This document shows positions 37,427 to 40,892 of a stretch of 41,615 nt of DNA, piece after piece. The position numbers and the translations under genes were made by a program. Source of the DNA: a bacterium (GTDB lineage: Bacteria; Cyanobacteriota; Vampirovibrionia; Gastranaerophilales; Gastranaerophilaceae). The stretch's first letter is position 1. The number at the start of each line of letters is the position of its first letter. Where the stretch lies: the NCBI GenBank assembly GCA_017942035.1, contig JAGAVG010000047.1:1-41615 (forward strand), written 5' to 3'. Below the pieces are notes generated by a model. It made no database searches and was not told where the DNA came from. It worked only from the letters and a program-made list of their open reading frames with translations.

Positions 37427-38839
37427 TTGGGCAAAAATCAAAAGTCTGAACTTTGTTGGAAAGATTTTGAACATATAGAAAAAGAACGGGATATTGCCTT
37501 TAATATTTTAACTTTAGCTGTTCAAACTCAAGCTAAAGGTATAAATATTCTTTTGTATGGTTCAGTCGGAACAGGCAAAACGCAGCTTGCAAAACTTCTT
37601 GCAAACAAAGCTAAGGTAGATATGTATTCGGTATCGGCAGAATTTATGGACAAAGAAGCTTCAAGAAAAGACAGGTTAAGCGATTTGGCTTCAAAACAGA
37701 CTATTCTTGCAAAAACTAACAACTCCTGCATACTTTTTGATGAAGCTGAAGATGTTATGAATAGAGGCTTCACAGAATTTGGTAGTGCTTCAAAGGCTTA
37801 TTTAAACACACTATTAGAAGAAACTCCTGTTCCGATTTTCTGGACGACGAACAATATTTATACGGTCGATCCTGCATTTTTGCGGCGAATGACTTATACT
37901 ATCGAGTTTGAAAAATTGACCGATGATATCAGATTGAATATTTGGAAAAAAGTTGTACGGAAAAATAAGTTAAAAGTGAATAAAGAAAAACTTGTTGAAC
38001 TGAACAAAAATTATGACATTCCGCCGTCATTGATTTCTAATGCGGTCAAAACTACAAAATTGATTAACGGCAGCCAAGATGATTTTGAAATTTTTGTTGA
38101 GAATGTCGCAAAAGTAGTTACTAAAAAGAAAAACGTTAAAAAGAAGAAAGAGTTTGAAATGAAAGAATATAGTGAAAAACTTATTAATACAGATTTGGAT
38201 ATAAGCGACTTGACATCAAAGATTAAATCTTGCGGCAAACTGAACTTTTCATTGTGCCTTTATGGTGAACCCGGAACTGGAAAAAGTTTGTATGCAAGAT
38301 ATTTGGCAAAAGAACTCGGGATTGATGTTATCTTGAAACGGGCAAGTGATTTGATGTCCAAGTATGTTGGTGAAACAGAGCAAAATATTGCTGAAGCATT
38401 TGAGGAGGCAAAATCAAAGAAAGCTATGTTGATTTTTGATGAAGCTGATTCGTTTTTGCAAAACAGGAATAATGCGGTGCGAAACTGGGAGGTTTCTCAA
38501 GTAAATGAAATGCTGACTTGGATGGAATCTCACGAGTATCCGTTTGTATGTACGACAAATTTGTTGGATACGTTGGACGAGGCAAGTTTAAGACGATTTA
38601 CATTTAAGATTAAATTTGATTTTATGACATCAGAGCAGACGAATTTAGCAATGGGACATTTTTTCGGAATAAAAAATGCGAATTTGAATATTAAAGGTTT
38701 AACTGCCGGTGATTTTGCAACAGTCAAAAAGAAAGCAGATTTTTTGTGTATAACAGACTTGTACGAACTTTCCAAAATGCTTGAAGATGAAGTTAAGATT
38801 AAAAAGTCTAAAGAATTGCAGAATTGTGTTGGGTTTTAG
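37427..38839 (+). CDS. Double-AAA+ ATPase (C-terminal part of the interrupted gene)
   Basis: This 470-residue frame has two AAA+ modules. The first has Walker A GSVGTGKT and Walker B CILFDEAEDV, and the second GEPGTGKS and MLIFDEADSF, each followed by sensor/arginine blocks (AFLRRMTYTIEF; ASLRRFTFKIKF). The first canonical start is TTG 37427, which has no binding site. The frame is open back to 37289, right behind the TAA that ends the 172-residue frame, so this is most likely the rest of one gene. An ATPase of this type would remodel a protein or nucleic-acid partner; neighbours suggest a conflict-system role, but none is shown. Whether any product is made is unclear. Confidence 0.72.
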   Translation: MGKNQKSELCWKDFEHIEKERDIAFNILTLAVQTQAKGINILLYGSVGTGKTQLAKLLANKAKVDMYSVSAEFMDKEASRKDRLSDLASKQTILAKTNNSCILFDEAEDVMNRGFTEFGSASKAYLNTLLEETPVPIFWTTNNIYTVDPAFLRRMTYTIEFEKLTDDIRLNIWKKVVRKNKLKVNKEKLVELNKNYDIPPSLISNAVKTTKLINGSQDDFEIFVENVAKVVTKKKNVKKKKEFEMKEYSEKLINTDLDISDLTSKIKSCGKLNFSLCLYGEPGTGKSLYARYLAKELGIDVILKRASDLMSKYVGETEQNIAEAFEEAKSKKAMLIFDEADSFLQNRNNAVRNWEVSQVNEMLTWMESHEYPFVCTTNLLDTLDEASLRRFTFKIKFDFMTSEQTNLAMGHFFGIKNANLNIKGLTAGDFATVKKKADFLCITDLYELSKMLEDEVKIKKSKELQNCVGF

Positions 38840-38841
38840 GA

Positions 38842-38870
38842 TTGACATTTTTAAAGACATAAGTTATAAT
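38842..38870 (+). promoter_or_regulatory. Consensus sigma-70 promoter before the DUF3800 locus
   Basis: TTGACA (38842-38847) and TATAAT (38865-38870) are perfect consensus boxes with an ideal 17-base spacer. It begins 3 bases after the ATPase stop. It is the strongest promoter visible in the window. Confidence 0.85.
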
Positions 38871-38876
38871 AAAAGT

Positions 38877-38935
38877 ATGGGCTGGGTATTATACTCTGGG
38901 TCCACCTAAGGCGAGGGCACTCCTCGCCATTTTTA
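38877..38935 (+). ncRNA. Predicted structured small RNA upstream of DUF3800
   Basis: The segment between a consensus promoter and a terminator-like hairpin would give an RNA of about 60 nt. It contains CTGGGT twice (38882-38887, 38895-38900), a possible small hairpin GGGTA TTA TACTC (38884-38896) and the 7-bp terminal hairpin. There is no start codon with a binding site inside. Named RNA motifs (DUF3800-I and others) have been described upstream of DUF3800 genes, so this could be one or a new class; I cannot match it here. It could act as a separate RNA or as a leader that attenuates the gene. Confidence 0.55.
38910..38934 (+). terminator. Terminator or attenuator before DUF3800
   Basis: The stem GGCGAGG / CCTCGCC with loop GCACT is followed by ATTTTTAATT. 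It lies between the consensus promoter and the DUF3800 start, 15 bases before the GTG. Confidence 0.75.
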
Positions 38936-38949
38936 ATTAAGGAAGTAAC

Positions 38950-39636
38950 GTGAGAGAATTAAGCATTTTTGTAGATGAGTCAGGTGATTTTGGTGAGTAT
39001 AATCATACTTCACCATATTATATTGTTACATTAATTATTCATGAACAAGAAAATTCAATCAGTGAACAAGTTAAAAATTTGGATTTTTATTTGGATAATT
39101 TAAATATAAACTTAAAAGCTATACATACTGCACCTCTTATTAGGCGGGAAGAAGTTTATAAAATTATATCAAAAGATGACAGATTAAAGATATTTAATAC
39201 ATTTTTTCATTTTACAAGAAAAGTTGGCATAAAATACAAAAATATTGTAGTTGAGAAAAAACATAAAAATTCAATAGATATAAATAATAGTATATCTAAA
39301 CAGCTTTCATTATTTATTAAAGATAACCTAAATTATTTTCAAAAATTTGATAATATAATAATCTATTATGATAATGGTCAAAACCAGTTAGCCAATATTT
39401 TGGTATCAGTTTTTTCATCTTGGTTTCATGATAAGTTTGATTATCGTACTGTATCACCTTATGAATATAGATTATTCCAAGTCGCTGATTTTATTTGTAC
39501 ATTGTCTTTAATTGAAAATAAATTAATCTGTAATAAATGTTTAACGAAGTCGGAGAGTTTATTTTTTGGCACCCCTCGAAATTTAAAAATGAAATATTTA
39601 AAACATATTAAAAAATTAGATTTTGGTGCAAATTAA
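38950..39636 (+). CDS. DUF3800 family protein
   Basis: This 228-residue protein begins LSIFVDESGDFGEYN, the DESG signature of DUF3800, and has the later blocks NIIIYYDNGQNQLANIL and EYRLFQVADFICTLSLIE. The conserved acidic residues (D8, E9 and the later D's) recall an RNase-H-like nuclease fold, although the activity is unproven. The start is GTG 38950 with AAGGAAG at a proper distance. Such genes are frequent on mobile elements. Here it lies between two predicted small RNAs, one upstream on its own strand and one downstream on the opposite strand, which suggests RNA regulation or an RNA partner. Confidence 0.8.
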   Translation: MRELSIFVDESGDFGEYNHTSPYYIVTLIIHEQENSISEQVKNLDFYLDNLNINLKAIHTAPLIRREEVYKIISKDDRLKIFNTFFHFTRKVGIKYKNIVVEKKHKNSIDINNSISKQLSLFIKDNLNYFQKFDNIIIYYDNGQNQLANILVSVFSSWFHDKFDYRTVSPYEYRLFQVADFICTLSLIENKLICNKCLTKSESLFFGTPRNLKMKYLKHIKKLDFGAN

Positions 39637-39656
39637 GTTATAATATAATTTAAACA

Positions 39657-39750
39657 TAAAAAAGTGTATGTAAATACATACACTTACTTGCTTTTGTACT
39701 ACGGGAACCTGTCTAGCAGGCTTATGCCCTTTCTCTTTAGAGCCAGAGTA
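39657..39750 (-). ncRNA. Predicted structured small RNA convergent with DUF3800
   Basis: The minus-strand transcript would start near TACTCTGGCTC, close an outer stem TGTACT/AGTACA (39695-39700 with 39747-39752), and hold the inner pairings CCTG...CAGG (39708-39720), GGG...CCC and CTC...GAG. It ends with the hairpin GTGTATGTATTTACATACAC (39664-39683) plus six T, a strong terminator on this strand. A promoter is placed just upstream. No reading frame with a binding site is present. The 5' TACTCTGG word also occurs in the RNA at 38877-38935. It could be an antisense-type antitoxin, an RNA partner of DUF3800, or the 3' end of the DUF1643 transcript. Confidence 0.5.
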
Positions 39751-39755
39751 CATTT

Positions 39756-39785
39756 ATATTATTACATATTTTTGTTTTTTTTCAA
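39756..39785 (-). promoter_or_regulatory. Promoter for the convergent small RNA
   Basis: On the minus strand TTGAAA (39780-39785) and TAATAT (39756-39761) are 18 bases apart. Transcription would start at about 39750. The region is so AT-rich that chance matches are likely; the terminator at the other end is the stronger evidence. Confidence 0.4.
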
Positions 39786-39815: not shown

Positions 39816-40547
39816 TTAATATTTATTTTTAATTATCAACTCAAATTTATCCTTTTGTTTTATTACAGCCAGTTCCTGTAGATTGGTCTTGCCGGTTAAG
39901 AATTTAGTTAACGGATAGTTGTTTTTCTTATTCACTCTGGTTGCAGGGTGGTAAGGACAATTTGAATTTTCATTCCAAGCGTATGCATATATTTTTAAAT
40001 CTGTAATTTTATCCCAAATGCTGCTTAAAATAATATTTTTATCTTTTTGACGAACTTTTGTACCCCAAGCTATCATTAAATCTTTATGCTCGGTTAATAC
40101 ATTTGATATTATTTTTGCATTAATGTCATTTGAAGTTTGGCTCGCTGATTTTATTGCAGTTAAGCTGTTTCCGTCTATATAGTTGAAAGAATTTAAAATA
40201 ATAACTTTTGAGTATCCTGCTTTGTAGGCAATTCTTATTGCATTTTTAACAGTTCCGTCGACTGTAGATTTTTTGCCGTTCATTTCTGGAAATGTATTTG
40301 ACGGGTTAAGCATTAAAACAACAAGAGTTTTATTGGAATTGTTTATTTCCAGTTCAAGATAATATCTGTAACAATCGGATTTTGCTTTTGGATTTTCGCA
40401 ATTGTAATATGCAAAGCCTTTAACATCTATGCGACAATTATTTTTGTTATTTTTACTTTGTCCAAAATACAAGTCAAAACTATCTGAGATGTCGAATTTA
40501 TAAGGTTTAATATTTTGAATGTTTTTAAAAATTTTTTCTTTGTTCAT
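39816..40547 (-). CDS. DUF1643 family protein
   Basis: This 243-residue protein carries the DUF1643 core: TLVVLMLNPSNTFPEMNG, VDGTVKNAIRIAYKAGYSKV, IILNSFNYIDG and LMIAWGTKVRQKD. The last 30 residues include CPYHPATR, the usual PxHP-type end of the family. No biochemical function is established for DUF1643. It is common on mobile elements and near defence genes. An AAGGAAAC-like purine stretch precedes ATG 40547. Its stop lies about 65 bases before the predicted convergent RNA, so the two may form one transcription unit. Confidence 0.8.
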   Translation of the reverse strand: MNKEKIFKNIQNIKPYKFDISDSFDLYFGQSKNNKNNCRIDVKGFAYYNCENPKAKSDCYRYYLELEINNSNKTLVVLMLNPSNTFPEMNGKKSTVDGTVKNAIRIAYKAGYSKVIILNSFNYIDGNSLTAIKSASQTSNDINAKIISNVLTEHKDLMIAWGTKVRQKDKNIILSSIWDKITDLKIYAYAWNENSNCPYHPATRVNKKNNYPLTKFLTGKTNLQELAVIKQKDKFELIIKNKY

Positions 40548-40610: not shown

Positions 40611-40892
40611 TTACAGATCATCTAACGTTAAATTTGTATTTCTTATATTTATTAATTTAGCTGTATTCTTAAAACCGCCCAGTCGACTCCAACCTTGATT
40701 TCCAGGATGTCTAATTTGTGTCTTTGTTCCGTTTTTTGTTGATGTAATAATTTCAATATTTTTATTTTCCCTTTGAGAATTTATAATCTTTATCCATTCT
40801 GAAGGTATAGATTTGTTACCCCAAGCTAATACAATTACTGAATCTTTTCGTTTTTCCAATAATTGAGAAATACTATACTCCTCTAGAAAATA
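40611..40892 (-). pseudogene. 5'-truncated remnant, possibly DUF1643-like
   Basis: The frame opens after a stop at 40893-40895 and reads LEEYSISQLLEKRKDSVIVL then AWGNKSIPSEW, which starts mid-domain. The only start is a TTG at 40859 without a binding site. VIVLAWGNKSIPSEW and the later QIRHPGNQGWSRLGGF resemble the C-terminal AWG...HP part of DUF1643. It lies 63 bp upstream of the intact DUF1643 gene. A decayed paralogue is the simplest reading, but a different family is possible. Confidence 0.4.

What the first reader, a model, noticed from the sequence alone, without database searches (positions are those of the whole stretch)
38842..39785. DUF3800 gene framed by two predicted convergent small RNAs sharing a TACTCTGG word
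Upstream there is a perfect-consensus promoter, about 60 nt of GC-richer structured sequence and a terminator. Downstream on the opposite strand there is a promoter, a multi-stem RNA and a strong terminator. Both RNAs carry T(A/G)TACTCTGG(G/C)TC. A nuclease-like gene boxed by two RNA units on a mobile element could be an RNA-regulated toxin or an RNA-guided or RNA-neutralised conflict system. DUF3800-linked RNA motifs are known, but I know of no description of a two-RNA arrangement.
Basis: partly seen in the sequence, partly recalled or inferred. Interest (0 to 1): 0.75.

Follow-up and report, generated by a model that had tools for sequence, protein, structure and literature searches.

The report
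RNA-neutralised DUF3800 toxin plus orphan RNA

Summary
Both predicted RNAs are real, but they are not one two-RNA system. RNA-A (38878-38933, +) belongs to the known Rfam family DUF3800-XI and forms, with the DUF3800 gene, a conserved module laid out promoter, RNA, terminator, nuclease. RNA-B (39752-39655, -) belongs to an RNA family absent from Rfam. In most relatives it is the leader of a HEPN (Abi_2/AbiF-like) RNase gene, and in this window it is an orphan. The shared word TACTCTGG is not conserved and is near chance.

New evidence on function is a strong asymmetry. All 26 intact DUF3800 genes in 299 Lachnospiraceae genomes carry RNA-A, and all 8 in the window's relatives do. Of 61 RNA-A places, only 23 have an intact gene. 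RNAs beside decayed genes score as well as RNAs beside intact ones. Eighteen phage contigs (about 12 lineages, up to 184 kb, several inside tRNA arrays) carry RNA-A with no DUF3800 anywhere on the record.

The best reading is an RNA-antitoxin/nuclease-toxin module analogous to type III TA and AbiF-RCd22, with phage copies as candidate antitoxin decoys. Function is inferred, not shown. The module is a new variant of a known kind.

The parts
38842..38870 (+). sigma-70-type promoter of RNA-A/DUF3800 (TTGACA-N17-TATAAT)
   Evidence: 12/12 consensus match; a TATAAT-like -10 lies before the RNA in relatives
38878..38933 (+). RNA-A: DUF3800-XI RNA (RF02975), two hairpins; the second doubles as an intrinsic terminator
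   Evidence: Rfam RF02975 34.9 bits, E 8.3e-6, slightly under the gathering score of 37.8; own model R2 63.4 bits, E 2e-17; covariation over 75 distinct sequences
38910..38935 (+). terminator hairpin between RNA-A and the gene
   Evidence: 8-pair stem, 6 GC, T-run
38950..39636 (+). DUF3800 protein (228 aa, GTG start after AAGGAAG), predicted RNase H-fold nuclease, toxin candidate; conserved D9, E10, D141, D180
   Evidence: PF12686 E 2.8e-11; conservation; AlphaFold2 pLDDT 91.9; best PDB match RNase H3 4py5, E 4.7e-4
39655..39752 (-). RNA-B: orphan member of a HEPN-associated RNA family that has no Rfam entry
   Evidence: conserved at 77-88% in relatives; model R1 finds it in 22 genomes over two searches; 16 of 22 are followed or flanked by a HEPN gene, the window is not; covariation
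39758..39785 (-). promoter of RNA-B (TTGAAA-N16-AATAAT); the -10 is conserved in relatives
   Evidence: alignment
39662..39685 (-). terminator hairpin of RNA-B (10 pairs); possibly also ends DUF3800 transcripts from the other side
   Evidence: one search lists it on both strands

Best explanation
38842-39636 is a self-contained RNA-protein module. One promoter makes an abundant ~55-nt, two-hairpin RNA (RNA-A, DUF3800-XI) that mostly stops at its own terminator hairpin; read-through yields a little DUF3800, an RNase H-fold nuclease. RNA-A binds DUF3800 directly as a structured ligand and holds it inactive. When transcription is disturbed, for example by phage, the short-lived RNA falls and the nuclease arrests the cell. 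RNA-B is the same kind of RNA from another module (HEPN RNase), left as an orphan after its gene was lost, still with promoter, fold and terminator. Such orphans can protect against incoming copies of the toxin, and phages carry RNA-A in this way. Shown here: conserved module layout, RNA structure, one-way dependence of the gene on the RNA, orphan RNAs in bacteria and phages. Inferred: toxicity, RNA-protein binding, trigger, anti-phage role, decoy role.
For: Layout promoter-RNA-terminator-gene in the window and relatives. RNA-A lies upstream of 26 of 26 intact DUF3800 genes in 299 Lachnospiraceae genomes, 8 of 8 in the window's relatives and 9 of 9 genes or gene pieces in genome contigs. Reverse: of 61 RNA-A places 23 have an intact gene, 17 a decayed or cut one, 21 none; RNA bit scores beside decayed genes equal those beside intact ones (58.8 vs 57.4, p 0.72). 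In the window's order G075 keeps RNA-A exactly where G048 of the same genus has RNA-A plus DUF3800. 18 phage records with RNA-A lack PF12686 over their whole length, 4 control records have both. Catalytic residues are intact and the fold is RNase H-like. A tested analogue with the same layout is RCd22/AbiFCd (PMC12373285).
Against: No toxicity, binding or transcript data exist here. RNA-A is one copy without the tandem repeats that define type III antitoxins. Only one sampled family (Lachnospiraceae) carries most of the statistics, from one draw of 299 genomes; 'none' cases of low score may include false matches. Persistence of orphan RNAs is also expected if the RNA has some other function of its own.
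Confidence: 0.66

Rival explanations
1. RNA-A is an activating co-factor or guide: DUF3800 uses the RNA to find or cut targets, as in OMEGA/CRISPR-like systems.
For: The gene never occurs without the RNA; DUF3800 has an RNase H fold like RuvC/Argonaute; a TPR-DUF3800 protein sits beside Cas12a2 in some loci (PMC10910872).
Against: RNA-A is conserved over almost its whole length, with only short loop and linker positions variable, so there is no guide segment; a guide without its nuclease would not persist as well conserved as with it nor be collected by phages.
Confidence: 0.12
2. RNA-A is only a cis-acting attenuator or riboswitch of DUF3800 that works by controlling the terminator.
For: The second hairpin is an intrinsic terminator between promoter and gene.
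Against: Many RNA-A copies have no gene behind them. In several phage copies the second hairpin is kept although the T-run is lost, so the hairpin matters beyond termination. RNA-B occurs divergent from its gene in G022 and G106, where it cannot be a leader.
Confidence: 0.1
3. RNA-A and RNA-B form one two-RNA system around DUF3800.
For: Convergent position and a shared 8-mer.
Against: RNA-B is absent from 46 other DUF3800 loci, is tied to HEPN genes instead, and the 8-mer is not conserved.
Confidence: 0.03
4. RNA-A is an independent regulatory RNA of phages and bacteria that DUF3800 recognises as a target or trigger, not an antitoxin.
For: It stands alone in phages near terminase genes and tRNA arrays.
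Against: It does not explain why an RNA always sits directly upstream of the intact gene, under the same promoter.
Confidence: 0.09

Closest known systems
DUF3800-XI RNA (Rfam RF02975)
   Same: RNA-A has its two-hairpin consensus and its place upstream of DUF3800 genes
   Different: The window's copy is a diverged relative just under the gathering score; the RNA-without-gene asymmetry and the phage orphans are not in any text I could find (Weinberg 2017 is not held)
AbiF / RCd22 system (Abi_2 HEPN toxin with RNA antitoxin, RF03085; PMC12373285)
   Same: Promoter-RNA-terminator-toxin layout; tested RNA-protein neutralisation in cis and in trans. RNA-B's usual partner is a HEPN protein with the RNxxxH motif and a weak Abi_2 match
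   Different: DUF3800 is an RNase H-fold protein, not HEPN; neither RNA-A nor RNA-B matches RF03085
Type III toxin-antitoxin (ToxIN, CptIN, TenpIN; PMC5086642)
   Same: One promoter, RNA antitoxin, Rho-independent terminator, then nuclease toxin
   Different: No tandem repeats in RNA-A; the toxin has a different fold
pseudo-ToxI of phage PhiTE (PMC3475682)
   Same: A phage-encoded copy of an RNA antitoxin that disarms the toxin
   Different: There it was selected in the laboratory in one phage; here full copies are fixed in about 12 unrelated phage lineages, and their effect is untested
TPR-DUF3800 protein beside Cas12a2 (PMC10910872)
   Same: DUF3800 with an RNase H fold near RNA-based systems
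   Different: No CRISPR array or Cas gene was noticed here; this protein is a lone 228-aa domain

Membership tests
DUF3800-XI RNA (RF02975) | Score over the Rfam gathering cut-off | tested here: not met
   34.9 vs 37.8 bits for the window copy; close relatives L013-L015 upstream of 72-87% identical proteins pass it
DUF3800-XI RNA (RF02975) | Two conserved hairpins with the GGGCUG...GGUCCAYC core and position upstream of DUF3800 | tested here: met
DUF3800 (PF12686) | Score over the Pfam cut-off | tested here: met
   44.7 vs 21 bits
Type III toxin-antitoxin | Rho-independent terminator between RNA and downstream toxin gene under one promoter | tested here: met
   same in relatives
Type III toxin-antitoxin | Antitoxin made of tandem nucleotide repeats | tested here: not met
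   no tandem repeats in 38877-38935
Type III toxin-antitoxin | ToxN/CptN/TenpN-type toxin | tested here: not met
   RNase H-like fold; no sequence relative in the PDB
Type III toxin-antitoxin | Toxin is toxic and is neutralised by the RNA | not testable with these tools
   needs experiment
AbiF-type HEPN/RNA system (for RNA-B) | Adjacent HEPN gene with RxxxxH motif | tested here: not met
   absent in the window; present next to RNA-B in 16 of 22 genomes, with invariant R133, N134 and H138
AbiF-type HEPN/RNA system (for RNA-B) | RNA matches Rfam RF03085 | tested here: not met
   no match to RNA-B even at E up to 10, nor to RNA-B of relatives

The most novel reading that the evidence does not exclude
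DUF3800 with DUF3800-XI RNA is an anti-phage RNA-antitoxin system, and large gut and rumen phages of about a dozen unrelated lineages carry free-standing copies of the antitoxin RNA, often within their tRNA arrays, as ready-made RNA decoys against it. Orphan RNA-A and RNA-B in bacterial chromosomes are the corresponding anti-addiction relics.
Probability: 0.45. Interest if true: 0.85.

Novelty: new variant of a known kind. Interest (0 to 1): 0.68.

Why it matters
Eleven or so DUF3800-linked RNA families have stood without a function. The evidence here points to one function, a structured RNA antitoxin for an RNase H-fold toxin, and supplies a one-plasmid test. If phages really collect this RNA, that would be a natural, widespread RNA counter-defence, and it would show which phages the system acts against. 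RNA-B adds an undescribed RNA family for Abi_2/HEPN proteins, the presumed ancestors of Cas13.

Tried and rejected
Shared TACTCTGG as a functional link: not conserved, near chance. RNA-B as a DUF3800 partner: none at 46 DUF3800 loci. RNA-B as the RNA of the neighbouring DUF1643 gene: relatives place it before HEPN genes instead. HEPN remnant in the window: none found. RNA-B in phages: one pattern hit, which proved to be coding sequence without HEPN, and 0 for a second pattern. RNA-A of the window's own type in viral contigs: 0. RNA-A in named phages and plasmids: none. cow-rumen-3 match (18.5 bits, E 0.16): explained by its 3' part resembling RNA-A's first hairpin. Foldseek of the HEPN model gave nothing usable, so the HEPN assignment rests on the RNxxxH motif and a weak Abi_2 score.

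Full report
What is in the window. The promoter TTGACA-N17-TATAAT at 38842-38870 is exact. It is followed about 8 nt later by a GC-rich segment folding into two hairpins, the second being an intrinsic terminator. DUF3800 starts at 38950 with a GTG behind a good Shine-Dalgarno sequence (PF12686). On the minus strand a promoter at 39785-39758 precedes a structured RNA that ends at a 10-pair hairpin terminator (39685-39662), 19 nt beyond the stop codon of DUF3800.

What RNA-A is. With the region searched alone, Rfam's DUF3800-XI (RF02975) matches 38878-38925 with 34.9 bits, E 8e-6, a little under its gathering score. The same RNA lies directly upstream of all nine relatives of the protein (81-40% identity) found in genome contigs. 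A model built here (R2) scores the window copy at 63.4 bits. Over 75 distinct sequences 95% of cells pair, 11 of 14 pairs show two-sided changes, and neither shuffles nor slid partners come close. The alignment was fitted to the model, which favours its structure. RNA-A has no long variable segment; only a few loop and linker positions vary, which leaves no room for a guide.

What RNA-B is. A DNA search finds it in six other genomes of the window's family, and two model searches (R1) find it in 22 genomes. In 16 of these a HEPN protein gene (~250-271 aa, RNxxxH motif, weak Abi_2 match) lies beside it, nearly always starting about 115-130 nt after the RNA start. In two distant genomes (G022, G106) the RNA is divergent from the gene. 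Two of the 16 (G609, G560) look frameshifted near the start. Two more carry remnants (G635, G603). Four have no HEPN at all: this window, G071, G490 and G456. RNA-B has no match in Rfam and has covarying stems. It is absent from 46 other DUF3800 loci. It is therefore an orphan from another module. No trace of a HEPN gene remains in the window.

The two RNAs are not a pair. The common word TACTCTGG sits in the inner stem of RNA-A and in the outer stem of RNA-B, is not kept in relatives of either, and an equally long shared word arises in 5% of shuffles.

The asymmetry test. If RNA-A is an antitoxin, DUF3800 should not survive without it, while the RNA may survive without DUF3800. In a draw of 299 Lachnospiraceae genomes, 26 intact DUF3800 genes were found. 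Twenty-three have an Rfam-detected RNA-A directly upstream. Two more have it by model R2 (G195 41.7 bits, G377 29.1 bits). In the last (G193) the contig breaks inside the RNA and the rest lies on another contig end. That is 26 of 26, plus 8 of 8 in the window's relatives. A 27th gene (G236) has RNA-A and an internal stop. In reverse, 61 RNA-A places yield 23 intact genes, 17 decayed or cut genes and 21 with no gene. Of the 17, G193 is a contig break, G347 may be a shorter gene, and G249:C25 is doubtful. Low-scoring members of the 'none' group may be false, but 8 of the 21 score above 58 bits. RNA scores beside decayed genes equal those beside intact ones (58.8 vs 57.4 bits, Mann-Whitney p 0.72). 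In the window's own order, G075 keeps RNA-A just where G048 of the same genus has RNA-A and DUF3800 before the same next gene.

Phage copies. An exact pattern scan of IMG/VR gave RNA-A on contigs without DUF3800. By my own estimate the broader pattern carries ~40 bits and should occur about 0.1 times by chance; the size of the collection was assumed. The 18 records without a gene fall into about 12 unrelated groups: L162; L163 (the G075 orphan, on a contig classed viral); L164/171; L165/168/169/174; L166/170; L193; L194/195; L196; L197; L198; L199; L200. Neighbours include large terminase, portal, tail protein and NrdD genes. In L164/171, L194/195, L198 (two copies) and L199 the RNA lies in an array of 6-22 tRNA genes. 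A search of the whole records (up to 184 kb) finds no PF12686 in any of the 18, and finds it in 4 of 4 control records that carry the module. These records may be fragments. In several of these phages the T-run is gone but the second hairpin remains, so that hairpin serves the RNA and not only termination.

The protein. AlphaFold2 gives a confident model (pLDDT 91.9). Its only PDB match under E 1e-3 is an RNase H3, with RNase H2 next, in line with the RNase H fold reported for DUF3800 in PMC10910872. D9, E10, H59, D141, Q177 and D180 are invariant in 36 relatives, and the window protein has them all. A nuclease is therefore likely; its substrate is unknown.

Mechanism and how sure. The nearest experimentally tested system is AbiFCd/RCd22 of C. 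difficile (PMC12373285). It has the same layout, mostly short RNA with little read-through, and direct neutralisation in cis and in trans. [quoted passage not shown] What is shown here is layout, conservation, structure, one-way dependence and phage orphans. Toxicity, binding, trigger and anti-phage effect are inferred. For phage antitoxin mimics the precedent is pseudo-ToxI (PMC3475682).

Novelty. RNA-A and its link to DUF3800 are known (Rfam). I found no text among the held papers that tests its function or reports the asymmetry or the phage orphans, but the original description (Weinberg 2017) could not be read. The RNA-B family appears undescribed in Rfam. Overall this is a new variant of a known kind, with one consequence (phage-borne RNA antitoxin decoys) that would be of wide interest if confirmed.

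Noticed in passing
G000:C6:15110-15811 (L043): The window's own genome holds a separate HEPN/Abi_2-like gene whose leader carries two repeats of ACCGGATGTAATTCCTTCAGTGT; the same repeat RNA precedes HEPN genes in L040-L042 and L046 but scores no Rfam match.
   Followed up: partly
L047 1501-2184, L052 1501-2205, L045, L044: Further HEPN relatives have other, mutually different structured segments upstream (e.g. AGCCTTATGGCCGGAAGCTAC...), suggesting several undescribed HEPN-linked RNA families.
   Followed up: no
L154 and L208 (G071, G490): 145-827 nt after the start of RNA-B: An orphan RNA-B is followed, in the same two genomes of one genus, by a pair of small genes (102 aa and a 126-aa protein with a weak HEPN match). 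A similar pair stands just before the orphan RNA-A in G075 (L029 7711-8399).
   Followed up: partly
window 37427-38839: Double AAA ATPase just upstream matches PADLOC IetA (E 2e-35); no subtilase partner was noticed.
   Followed up: no
window 39816-40547 and 40611-40859: DUF1643 gene followed by what looks by eye like a second, truncated copy on the same strand.
   Followed up: no
L198 3258-3304 and 5486-5539: A 176-kb phage contig carries two copies of RNA-A within one tRNA array.
   Followed up: yes
window 38779-38906: The 3' part of Rfam cow-rumen-3 (RF03083) resembles RNA-A's first hairpin; cow-rumen-3 may contain the same protein-binding element.
   Followed up: no
L200 2321-2374: Twister-P5 ribozyme on a phage contig that also carries an orphan RNA-A.
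   Followed up: no
L095 (G425:C43): An orphan RNA-A is followed by a nucleotidyltransferase-like gene and a short gene that may be a broken HEPN partner.
   Followed up: no
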